A DNA stretch of 64,000 bases from Thermofilum uzonense (lineage in GTDB: Archaea; Thermoproteota; Thermoprotei; Thermofilales; Thermofilaceae). Position 1 is the stretch's first letter. Each line of letters opens with the position of its first letter. Below, one piece after another: positions 36,305 through 61,508 of this stretch. Made by a program: the position numbers and the translations under genes. The notes under the pieces were generated by a model that worked only from the letters and a program-made list of their open reading frames with translations, had not been told where the DNA came from and made no database searches. Where the stretch lies: the NCBI RefSeq assembly GCF_000993805.1, contig NZ_CP009961.1, positions 1,450,453 to 1,514,452 of the forward strand, read 5' to 3'.

Positions 36305-36508
36305 GGCACACTAGGTACAACCTTAGAGGTTGCTTACACGGAACTGAAACAGGAGAAGAAGCATATTGCAGAGTACTACAGGAGCTCGCAAATCCACTTC
36401 TTTCTAATGGATGCAGTTAAGCAGGGGAAAATAGTCGAAAGAAGCCCATTGTTAAATTGGATGAGCCTAGAGGAGACTCCTCTTGATCAAGAGAAATCCG
36501 AAGCATAA
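36305..36508 (+). other. possible coding remnant without start codon
   Basis: An open stretch after copy A reads E-V-A-Y-T-E-L-K-Q-E-K-K-H-I-A-E-Y-Y and ends S-P-L-L-N-W-M-S-L-E-E-T-P-L-D-Q-E. It looks protein-like (amphipathic, charged) but has no usable start near its beginning and no family is recognised. It may be the tail of a gene truncated when the element inserted. The remaining bases up to 36600 hold only the S6e promoter region. Confidence 0.25.
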
Positions 36509-36614
36509 TTCTTTCAGAACCCTTTATTGAATGTAAACCGTCCTGCGTCACTGGTTGCCGGCTCCCGCGAAAAATCTTTATATCATATAATGCTCACGTA
36601 GGTCTGAGTTCGAT

Positions 36615-38895: not shown

Positions 38896-39145
38896 CCGCC
38901 GCCCTGCGCCACTGGGGGGCGGCTCCCGGTTGCCCTTCTTAGGGGTTATTGTTTCTGGCCTGGTGGCCGTGTTTTTTCTTCTCGGTGGCGGCTACTACGC
39001 CTTGGTGTGTCGGTATGAAGGCTTCGATCTTGCTTGGTGTTGGCGGGGTGTATCCCGCCTTGTGGGCGATGTTCAAGCATGCGTTTATGTCCGCGTTGAT
39101 CTCGAGGCCGCAGTTCTTTCACACGTATAGGCCGCGGTGGATCCT
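38896..39145 (-). pseudogene. TnpB C-terminal remnant with its 3' RNA element (copy b)
   Basis: The reverse strand matches the end of the TnpB gene at 51208-52740: the second half of the zinc finger, I-N-A-D-I-N-A-C-L-N-I-A-H-K-A-G, then T-H-Q-G-V-V-A-A, and the motif containing the stop (AACAATAACCCC). The RNA-like tail folds with stem GCCGCC/GGCGGC. Nearly all upstream coding sequence is missing; 39146-39300 shows no clear homology. It is head-to-head with the secreted gene and module copy B. Confidence 0.88.
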
Positions 39146-39310
39146 GACGCCGTGTTCCCTGGCGGCCCAGGCTAGCCAGCTGGTAGCCTGGCGGTGTCCC
39201 GTTCCCCCTGCTGACCAGCACAGCTGTTCGGCCTGCCCAGCGCGGCTCTACCGCTTCGAGTCGTGAAGCCCGCAGTAAAGCTTTTTTCACCGCTTTGAGT
39301 GTTCCAGTTG

Positions 39311-40699
39311 ATGGGCTGGAGGCTGGCAGCCCTCGTGGCGGCTGTCCTGGCAGTGCTCGCCTTGTTGCTCGTCTTCCCGCCGTCGAGGCAGAGCGGTGGG
39401 CAACACGGCCTGCAGGGCGGTGGGGTGGAGGCGCCCAGGCAGGTCCTCGTCTCGGCCACCGTGCTGGGGCAGGGTAGCCTTGCCCTCAACGGCACGCCAG
39501 TCTCGAACAGCACCCTGCTCCTGGGGCCCGGTGTCGTCAGCTTGGAGGCCAGGCCTGCAAGCGGGTGGAGGCTCAAGCAGCTCCTCGTCAACGGCTCGCC
39601 CGGGGTGGCTGACTGGCTAAGGATCAGGGGCAACACGAGCATCGCTGCTGTCTTCGAGCGGGTAAAGGTGAGGGTGGTGTTAGTGGTGGCTGGTGACGGG
39701 TTGCTCTACGTGAACGGTAGCTTAGCCGTGAACGGCACGGGCTCCAAGGAGCTGGAAGCCGAGCCGGGCGTGCTCCTGCTCGCTAGCCTAGAGCCCTGGA
39801 GCCCTTTCCTTCAGGCTAGGCTCTACGTGAACGGCACGCCCGTGGAGCGCTGCCCCTCCTGCCCTCCGGTCTACGCGGTGGAGGTGCGCGGGGACACTGA
39901 GCTCAGGGCAGTCTTCGAGCCCAGGAAGGTTGTGCTCCGCGTCGACGCTAAGGGCCTCGCCGCGAAGCTGGCCTCGAAGAGCTGGGAGCGCGTGGTCAAC
40001 GGCTCGGAGGTCATCGGGGCTACAGCGGGCGAGCCCGTGAACGTCACCTCTTACTGCCCCCCGAGCCCCGAGGCGAGGCCCTGCATCGTCGGCTGGGCCG
40101 TCAGGGTGCACGCGCCTACGGGCGTGCTCAACTCCACGGCCTCGGCTAACACCACCATTACCCCCGTCTACGACATCGAGCTCGAGGCAATCGTGCAGAA
40201 AGTGGTCGGCGGCATACCCAGCCCCATCCCCGGAGGCGTCCTCTACGCCGGCAGGGAGATCCCGGCGGAGGCGGTGCCGAGGCACGTGTGGCTTGACGTG
40301 AGGCCGTGGACCGCGAAGGTGGAGTACCTCGGCAACGGCACCTGGCTCATCGACGAGCCAGTCGGCAACGACCTCTACATCGCGGTGCCCCCGAACTGGT
40401 CCCTCGTAACCGTGGAGGCTTGGCTCGTGGATAGCTACGTTAAGCCCTACCTCGACGTCTATGTCGTCACCAGCAACAACCCCGTCCTCCGCTACAAGGG
40501 GGCGGGCACCTGCAGCTCCTTCCCCAGCTACGTGAGGATGACCCTCGCCAGGGACGGCAGAGTCCTCGAGAAGCCCGAGTACTGGTGCCTGGGAGATGGG
40601 TATAGCACTGTCGGCCCCGACCCGCAGGCCAGGGAGAACTACCTCCTCTTTAGGGTGGCCAGCGCTAAGCTCAAAGTGCGGGTATCGCTCCAGCCCTAA
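39311..40699 (+). CDS. large secreted protein with InlB-B-like repeats
   Basis: A signal sequence (about residues 3-25, rich in A, L, V) is followed by repeats of the type seen in divergent InlB B-repeat domains: S-L-A-L-N-G-T-P-V, then S-G-W-R-L-K-Q-L-L-V-N-G, then T-S-I-A-A-V-F-E; the pattern recurs with V-E-V-R-G-D-T-E-L-R-A-V-F-E. Many N-x-S/T sequons suggest N-glycosylation. 462 residues from ATG 39311. Base composition is visibly GC-richer than flanking genes. It lies between TnpB remnant b and module copy B, so it may be element cargo. Confidence 0.8.
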   Translation: MGWRLAALVAAVLAVLALLLVFPPSRQSGGQHGLQGGGVEAPRQVLVSATVLGQGSLALNGTPVSNSTLLLGPGVVSLEARPASGWRLKQLLVNGSPGVADWLRIRGNTSIAAVFERVKVRVVLVVAGDGLLYVNGSLAVNGTGSKELEAEPGVLLLASLEPWSPFLQARLYVNGTPVERCPSCPPVYAVEVRGDTELRAVFEPRKVVLRVDAKGLAAKLASKSWERVVNGSEVIGATAGEPVNVTSYCPPSPEARPCIVGWAVRVHAPTGVLNSTASANTTITPVYDIELEAIVQKVVGGIPSPIPGGVLYAGREIPAEAVPRHVWLDVRPWTAKVEYLGNGTWLIDEPVGNDLYIAVPPNWSLVTVEAWLVDSYVKPYLDVYVVTSNNPVLRYKGAGTCSSFPSYVRMTLARDGRVLEKPEYWCLGDGYSTVGPDPQARENYLLFRVASAKLKVRVSLQP

Positions 40700-40745
40700 G
40701 GGGCTGAGTGATAAATAAATACTGGCTTTTTCTCTCATTTACTCG

Positions 40746-41044
40746 ATGAGGCTAGCATTCGTAGGGCTAGCGCTCCTAGCAGCCACTCTCTCAGCGGCGC
40801 TCGCCGCGCAGGGCAAGCCGGTGGAGGGGCTATCAAGGCCTGGCAGGTTGACCATGCAGGAAGGGCGTACCACGCCCTGACGGAGGCGGTCGAGGAGGTG
40901 AACATTCGACGCACACGCATCGCCTCCCTAAGGATCTACGCGGGCATCCTCCCAGAATACAGGAAGACACTCGACAGCATAGACGCGATGCTCAGAGAGC
41001 TAGAAGAGCGCAGGAGCAGGATTGAAGGCCTCCTCGATGAATGA
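40746..41044 (+). pseudogene. broken copy of the TnpB-associated secreted-helix gene (copy B)
   Basis: From ATG 40746 a clean signal peptide is read (M-R-L-A-F-V-G-L-A-L-L-A-A-T-L, then A-L-A-A-Q-G). The frame then fails near 40835: the homologous sequence continues in another frame as A-W-Q-V-D-H-A-G-R-A-Y-H-A-L-T-E and ends in the common C-terminal module with stop at 41042-41044. Compared with the intact gene at 53699, most of the middle third is deleted. A TATA-like GATAAATAAATA remains upstream. Confidence 0.88.
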
Positions 41045-41142
41045 GAAGCGGAGAAGACATACCAGGGACATTGAAAGTAAAACGAGCCGATAGCGGGCCC
41101 GAACCGGGTTTCAACCCATAGGGTAAATAATATATTTGAATA

Positions 41143-46867: not shown

Positions 46868-46964
46868 GGGCCGGTCGTCTAGCGGGAGGATGTCGCCTTC
46901 GCAAGGGCTAATGTAGGGGCTCCGAGTACGGCGGAGGTCCCGGGTTCGAATCCCGGCCGGTCCA
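46868..46964 (+). tRNA. tRNA-Ala(CGC) with a canonical intron
   Basis: The acceptor pairs GGGCCGG/CCGGTCC include the G3-U70 wobble, the alanine identity element, with discriminator A. Anticodon loop T-T-C-G-C-A is interrupted after position 37 by about 25 nt (46904-46928), then C38 and the 3' anticodon stem GGCGG. T arm CCGGG-TTCGAAT-CCCGG. Mature length about 72 nt. Confidence 0.92.
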
Positions 46965-47006
46965 CTCTCTATATTTTTGGGGGTTCTAGCATGTCTTCTA
47001 TGCTTC

Positions 47007-47135
47007 CTATTCCTCGAGAAGGCCTTCGATCCTGCTTTGGAGTTCTTCCAGCTCCCTGAGCATTGCATCGATGCCGTTAAGTGCCTTCCTTTGGCCTGGG
47101 ACGATGCTCGCGTAAGCCCTGAGGGTGGCGATGCG
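47007..47135 (-). pseudogene. fragment of the TnpB-associated secreted-helix gene (copy C)
   Basis: The reverse strand reads R-I-A-T-L-R-A-Y-A-S-I-V-P then R-K-A-L-N-G-I-D-A-M-L-R-E-L-E-E-L and Q-S-R-I-E-G-L-L-E-E with stop at 47009-47007. Only the C-terminal module remains. The flank after the stop (GGAAGCATAGAAGACAT) resembles the flanks of copies B and D. It abuts TnpB remnant c two bases away, pointing in the opposite direction. Confidence 0.88.
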
Positions 47136-47137
47136 CG

Positions 47138-47346
47138 TGCAAGAACTTCGGCCTAGAGATAAACGCGGGCATCAATGCATGCTTGGACATTGACCACAAG
47201 ACAGGATGCAACGCCTCAGCGCCGGCTAAAAACGAAGCCTTTGTACCGACGCATCAAGGAGTCATATCACTTGCCGAGAAAAAAAAGCAGGATACGAGCA
47301 CCAGGATCCAGAGAATAACCCCCTGGAATGGTAACCCGGAAGCCGC
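47138..47346 (+). pseudogene. TnpB C-terminal remnant with 3' RNA element (copy c)
   Basis: Reads C-K-N-F-G-L-E-I-N-A-G-I-N-A-C-L-D-I and later T-H-Q-G-V-I, matching the end of the full TnpB. The zinc-finger Cys is changed to Phe and the RuvC-III Asp to Gly, so it is dead. The RNA-like tail follows (AATAACCCCC ... GGTAACCC ... GCCGCC/GGCGGT). 47347-47454, before L18a, shows nothing further. Confidence 0.87.
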
Positions 47347-47454
47347 CCCACGCGGTCGGCGGTGGTCCGCTCTTACCTATTGTTATTACTTCCACGTCTT
47401 TCCAGCAAAAGGTTTTTCTATCCATTATGCCAAGCCATGGGTAGGCGGTAAACA

Positions 47455-50766: not shown

Positions 50767-51153
50767 GTGCTCTTGGTTAAAAAAACAGTCATCGAGGTTG
50801 ATGGCTGCAGTGGAGTAGACATTACGGAGACCTTGAGCAGTCTGAAGGACTTTACCCAGAGCATTCAAATCGAGACACCCCAAGGTCTCTCCAGGGTTGA
50901 GGTACGCGTGAAGAGGATTGAGAGGAGTGGCGAGTGTTGGTATTTGAGAATCGGGTTAAGGAAGCGTGAAGGGTGGCTTTGGGGCGAGGATTTCTCAATA
51001 TGCGTTGAAGAGGCTGGGCCCCTCTTCAGGATTAACATTGAGAGAATAAAGGGGGTTGGACGTGTGCACGCTGACGTCTTCGGGTTGTGGATTGTCGAGT
51101 TGCTGAAGAAAAAATGTGCTGCGGTCTCCCCAGTAATAGTGTCACGTCTCTAG
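50767..51153 (+). CDS. protein of unknown function
   Basis: 128 residues, GTG start. Mostly beta strands with charged loops (V-E-V-R-V-K-R-I-E-R, then W-Y-L-R-I-G-L-R-K-R) and a last helix W-I-V-E-L-L-K-K-K. No family recognised. The element with TnpB begins about 10 nt after its stop, so its 3' end may have been altered by insertion. It shares a very short divergent promoter region with the preceding gene. Confidence 0.6.
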   Translation: MLLVKKTVIEVDGCSGVDITETLSSLKDFTQSIQIETPQGLSRVEVRVKRIERSGECWYLRIGLRKREGWLWGEDFSICVEEAGPLFRINIERIKGVGRVHADVFGLWIVELLKKKCAAVSPVIVSRL

Positions 51154-51160
51154 CTTTCTA

Positions 51161-51230
51161 CCCGCTCTGCGCCACTAGGGCGGGCTCCCGGTTACCCTTC
51201 TTAGGGGTTATTGTTTCCGGCTGGTACTTT
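51161..51230 (-). ncRNA. TnpB-associated 3' structured RNA element (omega-RNA-like)
   Basis: The reverse strand downstream of and overlapping the tnpB stop reads AACAATAACCCC, then GGGTAACCGGGAGCC and a closing stem GCCCGC/GCGGGT. The same element follows TnpB remnants b and c, with the stem changed to GCCGCC/GGCGGC and GCCGCC/GGCGGT, i.e. base changes that keep pairing. In IS605-type systems this right-end RNA is the guide scaffold; here that role is inferred. Confidence 0.62.
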
Positions 51231-52740
51231 TTTCTCCTCGTTTAGCGGCCACTACGCCTTGGTGGGTCGGGGTGTAGGTCTCGATTCTCGTCGGTGTCGG
51301 CGGGGTGTATCCCGCCTTGTGGGCGATGTTCAAGCATGCGTTTATGTCCGCGTGTATCTCGAGGCCGCACCGGGGGCACTTGTAGAGGCCGCGGTGGACG
51401 CGGGCCTCCTTGTCCTCGTAGCCACAGTGAGAGCACGTGATCGATGTCTTGCTCTCGTCGACGACGAAGACTTTCATCCCGTGCTCGCTGGCGACCTCGG
51501 CGAGCCATGTGATGATTTTCCTGTAGCCCCAGACGTTGCTGTTCCACTTGTTGCCCTTTTCGTGGATTATGTCGTATGGGAGGCCGACGTAGATTGTGTC
51601 CACGCCCTCCTCCCAGAGGAGGCGGACGAGGTGCTTGACGGTGTTGCGTTTCAGGTTCTGCATCCGCCTAGTTCTCTTCTCCACAGCTCTGGCGTAAAAC
51701 AGGTGCCAGCGATGCCAGGGCAAACCGTGGTTCTTGCACTTATCGCGGAGGCTCTGAAACGTCTTCGCCTCCCTGCTCCAGTACTCGTATTCTGCTTTAA
51801 TGGGCCCTCCCCGATATAGGAGGGCCCTCCCTGTGGTAGTCACTGCCGCAATGACGTTGTTGACCCCGAGGTCGATGAAGGCCTTCTCCCCACCCCGGGG
51901 TTGTTGCAACTGGATCCTGTCACGCTCACCGTTGATGTACATGTAGCTATACTTCCTTTCCCGTGGCGCCGGCACGCCCACGTTTACTGGTATGTAGGCG
52001 TACCAGCGCCCGTTGACCTCTTTGACAACGAGAGTTCCCTGCTTGCCGCGCCAGCGCAGTTTCCCGCGGTACGCTAAGGATATCCACTTCCCGGCAACAG
52101 AGACTATGAGTTTGCCCCTCCGCCCCCCCTCGTTGACAACTCTGTAACCTCTCCCTTCGACGAATAGCACTTTTTCCCGTTTTCCGAGCAAGCGATCCTT
52201 CTTGTACCCGGGCGGCCTAGGCTTCATCCACCCGGGCAGCTTGCCCTCCTTTTTCGCCTTGAGTAGTCCAAAAAACCTCTGCCAGTCTTGTTGGAGTTGT
52301 TCCTTGACACCGTCCGCGATGTAGCTCCCTAGACGGGGCCTGCCGCAGAGCCCCCTGCTGTAGGCCCTGTAGAACACCCTGATTATTCTGCTCACTTTCT
52401 CGTCTGTGTAGTTTCTAGTAAAGAATAGCTTTCTGAGGATGAAGTTCACCTCGTTGTACATCTTAGCCGTAGCGTCAGCGAGGGCCTCGAGTTCCCGCTC
52501 CACCTCGGGGTTCAATTTGAGGCGCAGGACGACGGCCCGGACACCCCCCGTTTCGACGGGGGCACACATCTCATCAGTTACCGGGCCACTTTCCTCGCCC
52601 CCGCTTGGCCCCGGAGGAGCGGGAGCCCTCACCGGCCTGTTGTCGCGCTTCTTTCTCCTTGAAGCCCTGGACTTCGCCCCACCCCCACCCCTCGCTCGGG
52701 GCGGGGCCTTTGCAGGCTTCTCCGCTTTTTCAGCTGCCAT
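51208..52740 (-). CDS. tnpB: TnpB-family protein of an IS605-like element
   Basis: RNA-guided nuclease family encoded by transposons. The C-terminal half has RuvC-I F-I-D-L-G-V-N-N (Asp near residue 284), a zinc finger C-S-H-C-G ... C-P-R-C-G (about 436-460) and RuvC-III A-D-I-N-A-C-L-N-I. At the RuvC-II position the usual Glu is absent (Y-V-G-L-P-Y-D-I); the nearest Glu is in H-E-K-G eight residues on. The N terminus carries about 70 Ala/Pro/Arg/Lys-rich residues absent from typical TnpB. ATG 52740 follows GGTGAGGGG. No tnpA is in the window. Confidence 0.9.
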   Translation of the reverse strand: MAAEKAEKPAKAPPRARGGGGAKSRASRRKKRDNRPVRAPAPPGPSGGEESGPVTDEMCAPVETGGVRAVVLRLKLNPEVERELEALADATAKMYNEVNFILRKLFFTRNYTDEKVSRIIRVFYRAYSRGLCGRPRLGSYIADGVKEQLQQDWQRFFGLLKAKKEGKLPGWMKPRPPGYKKDRLLGKREKVLFVEGRGYRVVNEGGRRGKLIVSVAGKWISLAYRGKLRWRGKQGTLVVKEVNGRWYAYIPVNVGVPAPRERKYSYMYINGERDRIQLQQPRGGEKAFIDLGVNNVIAAVTTTGRALLYRGGPIKAEYEYWSREAKTFQSLRDKCKNHGLPWHRWHLFYARAVEKRTRRMQNLKRNTVKHLVRLLWEEGVDTIYVGLPYDIIHEKGNKWNSNVWGYRKIITWLAEVASEHGMKVFVVDESKTSITCSHCGYEDKEARVHRGLYKCPRCGLEIHADINACLNIAHKAGYTPPTPTRIETYTPTHQGVVAAKRGEKSTSRKQ

Positions 52741-53218
52741 CCCCTCACCCCTTTCGGGGGCCCGGGTTCCTCGGCGTGGAGCCGCCGACCATGGCCGGCG
52801 TCCACGCGTCACAGCGTAGCCCGGGCTCCTGTTGCCCGGGGCCCCAGTGAAGGGGCGCAGGCCTGTAGGCCCGGGCCCCTGAGGGGTGGGGTTGTTACCC
52901 GGGAGCCATGCCCCAGCGCGCAGCCCCCCTGTATCACTGCCCCGTCATGCCTGGACGCCCCCTGCGTCTCGGCGCCCACGCGGCCCACCCGGGAGCCGCC
53001 CCCAGTGACTACCCCCTCTTTACCCCCCGCCTCCACCCATTCCAAACTCCGCGTGGGCTTAGCCGCGCCTTGGGGGCTTCAGGGGCTGTGGCCGGAGCCC
53101 TGGGGGCGGGCTGCCGGCCCGCTCTTGGGGCGTTCCTCTAGGCGGACACCCCCATGATGGCCGGGGGCACCCCGGTGAGGGGTAGCGGGCGCGTGCCCCT
53201 CGCCCCGCCCCGCGACCG
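52741..53218. other. GC-rich stretch upstream of tnpB with many short hairpins
   Basis: About 480 nt without a believable gene, visibly richer in G and C than flanking protein genes. Short perfect hairpins occur, such as CCCGGGC/GCCCGGG (about 52819-52839) and GGCCTGTAGGCC (52860-52871). Such composition in a hyperthermophile usually marks stable RNA. I looked for SRP RNA and RNase P RNA signatures on both strands and did not find them convincingly. It may be a 5' untranslated region or an unrecognised RNA. Confidence 0.4.
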
Positions 53219-53414
53219 CCAGACCCCCTCAAAAACACAAGCCTTTCCCGGCGCCCCCGTTTCGCCTCGGGCTACTCCGTGGGCGCCCCTCGGGCCAGGC
53301 GGCCCACGGGGCCGGCGAGGCCCTCACAGGACCCTCCACCCCCTCACAAGGGGGTGCCACCACTAAAGGTTGGGATGGAGGATTAAAAAAGGCTTATGTT
53401 TTGAGGGGGTCTGG
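53219..53414. repeat. inverted repeat pair flanking a GC-rich 140-bp segment
   Basis: The left arm 53219-53246 starts CCAGACCCCCTCAAAA; the right arm 53388-53414 is its inverse complement with one inserted base and one substitution (16 identical bases, then 9 more after the difference). The enclosed segment is GC-rich. The layout resembles a small inverted-repeat element (MITE-like) or the foot of a long RNA hairpin. Confidence 0.75.
53228..53362 (-). ncRNA. candidate structured small RNA inside the inverted repeat
   Basis: On the reverse strand a TATA-like CTTTTTTAATCC (53382-53393) lies about 25 nt before a GC-rich run with a perfect 7-bp hairpin CACCCCC/GGGGGTG and an 8-bp pair CCGTGGGC/GCCCACGG. 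The run ends in TGTTTTTG, a possible terminator. There is no open frame of quality. No family recognised. Confidence 0.4.
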
Positions 53415-53473
53415 TTTCGGCCCATGGTATTTGCTGCGCCGGGCATGCGTGCTGTGCTTTGCCTCTCTCCCTG

Positions 53474-53539
53474 CTTTCTTTTCCCCGAGAGTGCAGGAGC
53501 ACGTCCTTGTGCCCCAGTTTTCTCGGGGAAGCACTGTGT
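53474..53539 (-). repeat. inverted copy of the 16S leader hairpin
   Basis: The reverse strand is identical to 56638-56703 in 65 of 66 positions. It includes the outer stem CCCCGAG/CTCGGGG and the inner stem GGGGCAC/GTGCTCC. The single difference (G for A in the apical loop) leaves all pairs intact. It lies inside the TnpB/cargo unit, behind a TATA-like CTTTTTATACC (about 53642-53652, reverse strand), so it could be expressed as its own RNA. Confidence 0.9.
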
Positions 53540-53698
53540 AGCCGTCGAGGCCGTGTGCCCGCTCATCCCCCCTTGTCGGGGTTGAGGGCCATTGTTGAGG
53601 GCCTTGCGGCGGCCTGTATGATTAATATTATTATTATTCAGGTATAAAAAGACTAATTGTTTACCTTTTTAATGTTCCTGTTTAATGCTTTTTAGCGT

Positions 53699-54160
53699 AT
53701 GCTTGCCTGCACAGCTCTAGTAATGCTTCTCGTCTCTGCGGTGGAGGGCGAGGAGGGTGCTAGGCTGGAGGCTGAGAGTCTCCTGTGGACGGCTGTCTCC
53801 AACCCTCCTAGCGTCGAGGCCGCCGGGAGGCTGGCTGCCTACGCGTCGAGGGTGGTCGAGAGGGAGTACAGGGAGGCCTTGGAGGCTTACAGCCGGGCAT
53901 TGTCCCTCGCCGGTGGCCTCAACCTACACCCGGGGGAGTCCAGGGCTATGCAGGCCTTCCAGGTTGACCACGCGGGGAGGGCGTACCAGGCTCTAAGCGA
54001 GGCGGTCGAGGAGGTGAACATTCGACGCACACGCATCGCCTCCCTAAGGATCTACGCTGACATCCTCCCAGAATACAGGAAGACACTCAACGATATTGAC
54101 GCGATGCTCAGAGAGCTGGAAGAACTCAAAAGCAGGATTGAAGGACTCCTCGAGGAATAG
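53699..54160 (+). CDS. small secreted helical protein associated with TnpB (intact copy D)
   Basis: 153 residues: a short hydrophobic start (L-A-C-T-A-L-V-M-L-L-V-S-A, signal-peptide-like) and then an all-helical body rich in Ala, Glu, Arg with coiled-coil character, ending in the module A-S-L-R-I-Y-A-D-I-L-P-E-Y, then I-D-A-M-L-R-E-L-E-E-L-K-S-R-I-E-G-L-L-E-E. The family is not recognised. Three truncated or broken copies (36175, 40746, 47007) keep only this end. A TATA-like CTTTTTAATG (53665-53674) implies a leaderless message. It is head-to-head with tnpB. Confidence 0.78.
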   Translation: MLACTALVMLLVSAVEGEEGARLEAESLLWTAVSNPPSVEAAGRLAAYASRVVEREYREALEAYSRALSLAGGLNLHPGESRAMQAFQVDHAGRAYQALSEAVEEVNIRRTRIASLRIYADILPEYRKTLNDIDAMLRELEELKSRIEGLLEE

Positions 54161-54295
54161 GAAGCATGCCAAGGCTTTGCCTCGAGGATCGGTCTTTAAA
54201 GGCTCTGGCAAACCAAGTAAATAAAGCAAAAAGCTTTAAATTGCGAAGCAACCATGAATTCCAGGCGTTAAACATGGAGGGAACAGTAGACTTGC

Positions 54296-56754: not shown

Positions 56755-58256
<1,502 letters not shown>

Positions 58257-58271
58257 TTGATCCGGTCGGAA

Positions 58272-58290
58272 AGCCTGCGCACCGCGCCTC
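58272..58290 (+). other. 16S processing stem, right arm
   Basis: Perfect 19-bp complement of 56705-56723. The spacer that follows (58291-58378) contains a short hairpin and no tRNA gene. Confidence 0.85.
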
Positions 58291-58378
58291 ACGCCTACTC
58301 ATAATGGATGCAACCCCGGAGGCCAGGCCTCCTGGGTGAAGGGCGCAAGCCCCCATGCGACGCCATGGGGGATGATGA

Positions 58379-58392
58379 GCGCCGCGCAGGAG
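58379..58392 (+). other. 23S processing stem, left outer arm
   Basis: Fourteen bases pairing with 61518-61531. Inside it, 58402-58423 pairs perfectly with 61487-61508 (22 bp); 9-nt unpaired segments between the two helices give a bulge-helix-bulge-like layout for 23S release. Confidence 0.8.
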
Positions 58393-58404
58393 TGTGCAGA
58401 TCAG

Positions 58405-61508
<3,104 letters not shown>

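What the first reader, a model, noticed from the sequence alone, without database searches (positions are those of the whole stretch)
51208..52740. TnpB with missing RuvC-II glutamate and a long basic N-terminal tail
RuvC-I Asp and RuvC-III Asp are intact, as is the zinc finger, but the usual catalytic Glu position reads Y-V-G-L-P-Y-D-I. The closest Glu is eight residues later (H-E-K-G). Catalytically rearranged and nuclease-dead TnpB lineages are known, the latter acting as RNA-guided repressors. The roughly 70-residue Ala/Pro/Arg/Lys-rich tail before the core is also atypical. The protein could be active with a shifted Glu, or dead and regulatory.
Basis: partly seen in the sequence, partly recalled or inferred. 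Interest (0 to 1): 0.62.

Follow-up and report, generated by a model that had tools for sequence, protein, structure and literature searches.

The report
Archaeal TnpB with relocated catalytic glutamate
The gene encodes an ordinary RNA-guided transposon nuclease whose third catalytic acid sits in a known alternative position, so it is probably not a dead enzyme, and its archaeal host also carries dozens of shrunken copies of the same element, about a third of them placed directly behind tRNA genes.

Summary
It is E429, six residues before the first zinc-finger Cys, exactly the published alternative position (Ealt). E429 is invariant in 20 homologs and present in 65 of 66 TnpBs compared. The HEKG Glu is E in only 4 of 20. 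A 510-residue model (pLDDT 83.8) puts E429 at the end of a confident RuvC strand. RuvC-I reads DLG, so it belongs to the published D-Phi-G/Ealt clade, not Fanzor or pro-Fanzor. The basic tail is disordered in the model and lacks a coding signature; ATG 52569 is the likelier start. Active nuclease is favoured over dead regulator; not tested. More interesting is the setting: 36 omegaRNA/right-end scaffolds (E<=0.01) but only two tnpB genes of this type, no TnpA, and 34 scaffolds in tnpB-less copies resembling haloarchaeal PATEs. Of 32 copies with a recognised left end, 8 abut an intact tRNA 3' end (10 by T-arm; about 0.1 expected).

The parts
51208..52569 (-). tnpB, likelier coding part from ATG at 52569 (residue M58 of the 510-aa frame) to the stop
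   Evidence: homologs and solved TnpB/Cas12f structures begin at about model residue 62-66
52570..52740 (-). basic N-terminal extension of the open frame, probably not translated or disordered
   Evidence: flat codon-position identity and GC; pLDDT under 50 for residues 1-55
51871..51873 (-). RuvC-I Asp D290 (DLG)
   Evidence: invariant in A4 and A5
51583..51585 (-). Gly386 at the canonical RuvC-II Glu position
   Evidence: invariant G in A4 and A5; Cas12f chains have E here
51559..51561 (-).
   Evidence: E in 4 of 20 rows of A4; loop block 391-400 at mean pLDDT 60
51454..51456 (-). Glu429, alternative RuvC-II Glu (Ealt)
   Evidence: pattern match; invariant; 65 of 66
51367..51435 (-). zinc finger C436-C458
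51346..51348 (-). RuvC-III Asp D465
   Evidence: invariant
51160..51211 (-). omegaRNA (reRNA) 3' scaffold and right end: two hairpins overlapping the stop codon
   Evidence: model R1 81.9 bits (the row is one of those the model was built from); pair counts
51140..51159 (-). presumed guide, first 20 bases beyond the right end
   Evidence: conservation between copies stops at 51163-51160; guide role inferred from known TnpB systems
51163..54164 (-). whole element as defined by its second full copy (C1 about 986900-989878)
53699..54160 (+). ORF X (153 aa, function unknown); its 3' end is the conserved left end of the element family
   Evidence: 43 matches in own genome; no Pfam match over cut-off
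46966..47361 (+). tnpB-less copy directly behind a tRNA gene at 46868-46965
38898..41090 (-). tnpB-less copy holding a 466-aa secreted-protein-like ORF (39299-40699 +)

Best explanation
The protein is a TnpB of the published D-Phi-G/Ealt clade (IS200/IS605-type TnpB). Its RuvC site is built from D290, E429 and D465; the glutamate moved from the end of the strand that now carries Gly386 to the end of the next strand, just before the zinc finger. Shown: the three acids and their conservation, the predicted fold, and the hairpin scaffold at the 3' end of the gene. Inferred: the protein binds an omegaRNA cut from its own mRNA, uses the bases beyond the right end as guide, and cuts the empty site so that repair restores the element. 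The long basic tail is probably not translated.
For: Pattern match to the Ealt rule printed in PMC10711439, which also reports that Ealt proteins fall into a D-Phi-G clade and a DPG clade (passages). E429 invariant in 20 and 38 aligned homologs and present in 65 of 66 TnpBs from archaea and bacteria. Complementary swap against solved Cas12f: those have E at the Gly386 column and P at the E429 column; the one canonical TnpB (L179) shows the same (E in VFERL, P at the alternative site). Model mean pLDDT 83.8, pTM 0.78; E429 follows strand 423-428 in a block of about 93. Best matches are Cas12f and ISDra2 TnpB (Z 23.2 and 20.9) and a mimivirus Fanzor2 (Z 17.9). Third codon positions diverge most between the two copies.
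Against: No coordinates were available, so the distance of E429 from D290 and D465 was not measured. No activity, expression or RNA data. No Y1 TnpA (PF01797) or serine recombinase (PF00239) is found in this genome, so the element may be immobile now, and a stranded nuclease can be on its way to decay.
Confidence: 0.87

Rival explanations
1. Nuclease-dead TnpB acting as an RNA-guided repressor (TldR-like).
For: Canonical Glu absent; no transposase in the genome.
Against: All three acids of the alternative triad are present and invariant; zinc finger intact; the gene lies in an element with a second full copy rather than in a conserved host or phage context.
Confidence: 0.06
2. Active through Glu394 of HEKG.
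For: It is the nearest Glu after the canonical position in this sequence.
Against: Column 394 is E in 4 of 20 homologs and Ser in the 67% paralog; it lies in the least confident loop of the core (block 391-400, pLDDT 60).
Confidence: 0.02
3. Same Ealt site, but a decaying copy, already inactive, of an element that lost its transposase.
For: No TnpA; most relatives in this genome are deletion derivatives.
Against: Frame intact over 510 codons; paralog also intact; third positions diverge most.
Confidence: 0.15

Closest known systems
D-Phi-G / Ealt clade of TnpB (PMC10711439, passages)
   Same: DLG in RuvC-I, Glu six residues before the first CxxC, zinc finger and RuvC-III Asp in place
   Different: Nothing in the protein core that was tested; long basic extension of the open frame
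Fanzor and pro-Fanzor TnpB
   Same: Same alternative Glu position; same overall fold (mimivirus Fanzor2 9b0l, Z 17.9, rmsd 3.6, 363 aligned)
   Different: RuvC-I is DLG, not DPG
ISDra2 TnpB and SisTnpB1
   Same: TnpB fold (8exa Z 20.9, rmsd 3.5, 327 aligned); omegaRNA-like hairpins at the 3' end of the gene
   Different: SisTnpB1 residues D187/E271/D335 are reported as its RuvC triad (PMC10640517, passages), with E to D spacing of 64 against 36 here (E429 to D465)
PATEs of Haloquadratum (PMC3119063, passages)
   Different: Here the left end is the 3' end of an unrelated ORF, and about a third of the copies sit directly behind tRNA genes
Ghost elements of Fanzor (PMC10432273, passages)
   Same: Copies that keep ends and guide-RNA scaffold but lack the nuclease gene
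   Different: Archaeal; use by the full protein in trans is untested here

Membership tests
TnpB (guided_TnpB, NF040570) | whole-length profile match over the curated cut-off | tested here: met
   138.9 bits against cut-off 100, residues 72-475
TnpB with alternative Glu (Ealt) | Glu six residues before the first zinc-finger CxxC and none at the canonical site | tested here: met
   invariant
TnpB with alternative Glu (Ealt) | Glu in metal-binding distance of the two Asp | not testable with these tools
   model without coordinates; topology only
Fanzor / pro-Fanzor | DPG in RuvC-I together with Ealt | tested here: not met
   DLG at 290-292
TldR (dead TnpB repressor; definition recalled) | loss of RuvC catalytic residues | tested here: not met
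   D290, E429, D465 all present
IS200/IS605 autonomous element | Y1 TnpA transposase | tested here: not met
   PF01797: 0 matches in own genome, 5 of 14 control genomes positive
IS607 autonomous element | serine recombinase TnpA | tested here: not met
   PF00239: 0 matches in own genome, 10 of 14 controls positive
RNA-guided nuclease | omegaRNA-dependent DNA cleavage | not testable with these tools
   no expression or biochemical data
PATE (for the tnpB-less copies) | IS605-type ends fused after loss of the core, no transposase gene | tested here: met
   32 copies with both ends, 216-2167 bases apart; no TnpA
PATE (for the tnpB-less copies) | near-terminal palindromes | tested here: inconclusive
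   right-end hairpins supported; left-end palindromes seen by eye in some copies only

The most novel reading that the evidence does not exclude
The two full TnpBs serve a dispersed set of about 34 tnpB-less omegaRNA loci in trans, each with its own guide; the loci behind tRNA genes are made from tRNA read-through transcripts and direct TnpB cutting to the empty tRNA 3' flank, so that the shrunken copies home to and persist at tRNA genes without any TnpA.
Probability: 0.08. Interest if true: 0.75.

Novelty: new member of a known kind. Interest (0 to 1): 0.33.

Why it matters
It removes a false lead: absence of Glu at the canonical TnpB position does not mean a dead protein, and in this large archaeal and bacterial group the alternative Glu is the rule. 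For annotation, checking the residue seven places before the first zinc-finger Cys settles such cases. The surroundings pose a cleaner question: why shrunken TnpB elements accumulated precisely at tRNA 3' ends in one hyperthermophile that has no recognisable TnpA.

Tried and rejected
HEKG Glu394 as catalytic residue: rejected by conservation. Dead-repressor reading: no support.

Extra selection on the omegaRNA scaffold in the tnpB-less copies: tested by identity along the element; the 15 mid-size copies show 0.60-0.74 over the scaffold blocks against 0.51-0.80 elsewhere in the element, so the scaffold is not kept better than the rest. This speaks against a function in trans. Helix pairing in 33 distinct rows: 15 cells with two-sided changes against 6.2 shuffled, covariation score 0.172 against 0.121, 0 of 500 shuffles as high; but that alignment was fitted to the structure, and my own arm test was weak: permutations reaching the observed value were 39 of 5000 (7 bp), 26 of 5000 (8 bp) and 1755 of 5000 (6 bp) (two degenerate copies, L033 and L035, left out); a first version with a wrong arm offset gave 2531 of 5000. 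RNAalifold on a plain MAFFT alignment found almost nothing.

tRNA linkage as a general habit of this TnpB clade: 13 tRNA genes in 107 loci of relatives against 13.0 expected (several loci overlap), so not general. Empty sites in six same-genus genomes: no synteny around the copy at 46966-47361. First genome-contig scan with the single protein found nothing. Known RNA families: Rfam at gathering cut-off shows only rRNA and tRNA in the window. Papers on Thermofilum with TnpB: none in the held library (search 'Thermofilum' + 'TnpB', 0 papers).

Full report
WHAT IS THERE. The minus-strand frame 51208-52740 encodes 510 aa; it stays open to a GTG at 52812. It is a TnpB by NCBIfam (138.9 bits, cut-off 100) and by Pfam (Cas12f1-like_TNB and OrfB_IS605). 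The genome has 1,611,988 bases in one contig, the length printed for Thermofilum uzonense 1807-2 (PMC4673724, passages); I take it to be that organism. Its authors report two IS200/IS605 elements; the passages I saw do not mention the small copies described below.

THE GLUTAMATE. PMC10711439 (passages) places the canonical RuvC-II Glu about 50 residues before the zinc finger and the alternative one (Ealt) six residues before it, and states that Ealt proteins split into a D-Phi-G clade and a DPG clade. The window protein matches the Ealt pattern from D290 through E429 and C436 to D465. In A4 (20 homologs, 18 of them from other genomes) D290, E429 and D465 are invariant, and the old site reads G386-x-P388 in all rows; column 394 (HEKG) is E in 4 of 20 rows by my count of the printed alignment and Ser in the paralog. 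A5 (38 rows: the window protein and 37 from the search for related loci) again has D290, G386, E429 and D465 invariant. In a wider set of 66 TnpBs, from which frames of 330 aa or less and part of the fetched loci were left out, 65 have Glu at this column; the exception, from Thermogemmatispora, has Pro there and Glu at the canonical place. The set was gathered by similarity to the window protein, so it says nothing about how common Ealt is among all TnpBs. The profile alignment to Cas12f chains shows the same exchange. A tree of the 66 rows groups the window protein with its paralog (100/100) and then with Caldivirga, Desulfurococcales and other Thermoproteota proteins (99/96); the Ecan row is a very long branch, so the tree says little about the origin of Ealt.

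STRUCTURE. AlphaFold2 on A5 gave mean pLDDT 83.8 and pTM 0.78; residues 1-55 and 504-510 are below 50; E429 follows strand 423-428 in a block of mean 93, while the block with E394 has 60. Foldseek and VIA-align 2 rank Cas12f, ISDra2 TnpB and a mimivirus Fanzor2 among the top rows, aligned from model residue 62-66 on. No coordinates were given, so the active-site geometry is inferred from topology and from the published statement that Ealt models place the Glu consistently.

THE TAIL. Between the two full copies of this genome the tail is 64% identical with flat codon-position identity and flat GC by codon position, unlike the core. Both copies have an ATG near residue 56-58, close to where homologs and solved structures begin. 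I therefore favour ATG 52569 as start. Against this: both copies keep an open frame starting MAAEKAE, and some relatives also have N-terminal extensions.

THE ELEMENT. The second full copy lies at C1 about 986900-989878; similarity to the window copy starts at about 54164 and stops at 51163. Blocks from 54150 to 52715 are 87-100% identical, those over tnpB 40-87%, the right end 91%: a mosaic I cannot explain. At the left end lies ORF X, on the opposite strand, with 43 matches in the genome, one inside a 1403-aa membrane-protein-like ORF. No Y1 TnpA and no serine recombinase were found.

TNPB-LESS COPIES. tblastn with the window protein gave 31 matches: the window copy and one full paralog, a second distant TnpB pair (two pieces each), and 25 short matches to the C-terminus. 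A covariance model of the right-end hairpins (R1, 7 rows) finds 38 places at E<=1 and 36 at E<=0.01 in this genome; two of the 36 belong to the full tnpB genes. One of the two weak ones (window 36537-36581) proved to be a right-end fragment duplicated together with about 220 bases of flank. Of the 38, 32 have a recognised left end: 7 of 216-238 bases, 15 of 340-395, 6 of 530-545, and four of 731, 1189, 1771 and 2167. Beyond the right end sequences are unrelated, apart from that duplication and from flanks that run into tRNA genes or other copies. In 60 other genomes 6 have a match at E<=0.01, but only G015 of the same family gives several (3 places); one of them also shows the left end in the same antisense arrangement (read by eye).

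tRNA GENES. Of the 32 copies with a left end, 10 have a sense T-arm within 80 bases upstream and none an antisense one; ARAGORN with introns finds an intact tRNA ending about 20-30 bases before the left-end core in 8 of 32. A broader motif that admits decayed T-arms gives 11 of 32. The T-arm motif occurs 6 times in the 64-kb window on both strands, so about 0.1 would be expected (my arithmetic). All 8 have the same orientation: tRNA, left end, scaffold. The tRNAs differ, so this is not one duplicated tRNA-element unit, although two of them are close copies. Relatives show no tRNA excess. The cause, site preference or recombination through T-arms, is open.

VERDICT. The finding itself is a member of a known TnpB class with a misread active site. 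The copies are a PATE-like family (PMC3119063, passages); their even decay fits fossils better than guides in use.

Noticed in passing
own genome, 38 places; in window 38898-38949, 47315-47361, 51160-51211: About 34 right-end/omegaRNA scaffolds without a tnpB gene, against two full tnpB genes of this type; PATE-like deletion derivatives.
   Followed up: yes
window 46868-47361; L019, L029, L031, L032, L035, L037, L038: tnpB-less copies directly behind tRNA genes, always left end first; 8 of 32 by intact tRNA, 10 of 32 by T-arm.
   Followed up: partly
window 38898-41090; L022: Two tnpB-less copies (2167 and 1771 bases between ends) carry a secreted-protein-like ORF (466 aa in the window) between left and right end.
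   Followed up: no
window 53699-54160; L078 1612-5823: ORF X at the left end is 90% identical to the C-terminus of a 1403-aa membrane-protein-like ORF elsewhere; origin of the left end unclear.
   Followed up: partly
window 52715-53912 against C1 about 987150-988350: GC-rich block next to tnpB is 90-100% identical between the two full copies although tnpB itself is 40-87%; mosaic or gene conversion.
   Followed up: partly
window 36314-36567 and L038 (C1 about 1317177-1317430): 254 bases at 96% identity: a right-end fragment plus about 220 bases of its downstream flank copied next to the left end of another small copy.
   Followed up: partly
L003 (C1 1574488-1575600), L004 (C1 420650-421762): A second, nearly identical pair of distant TnpBs in the same genome, also with the alternative Glu; one has an in-frame stop in a matched stretch.
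   Followed up: no
G015: L093, L187, L188: A genome of another genus of the same family holds only tnpB-less copies of a related element in the searched assembly (93% complete).
   Followed up: partly
window 56755-61497: 16S and 23S rRNA genes; they explain the GC rise in this part of the window.
   Followed up: yes
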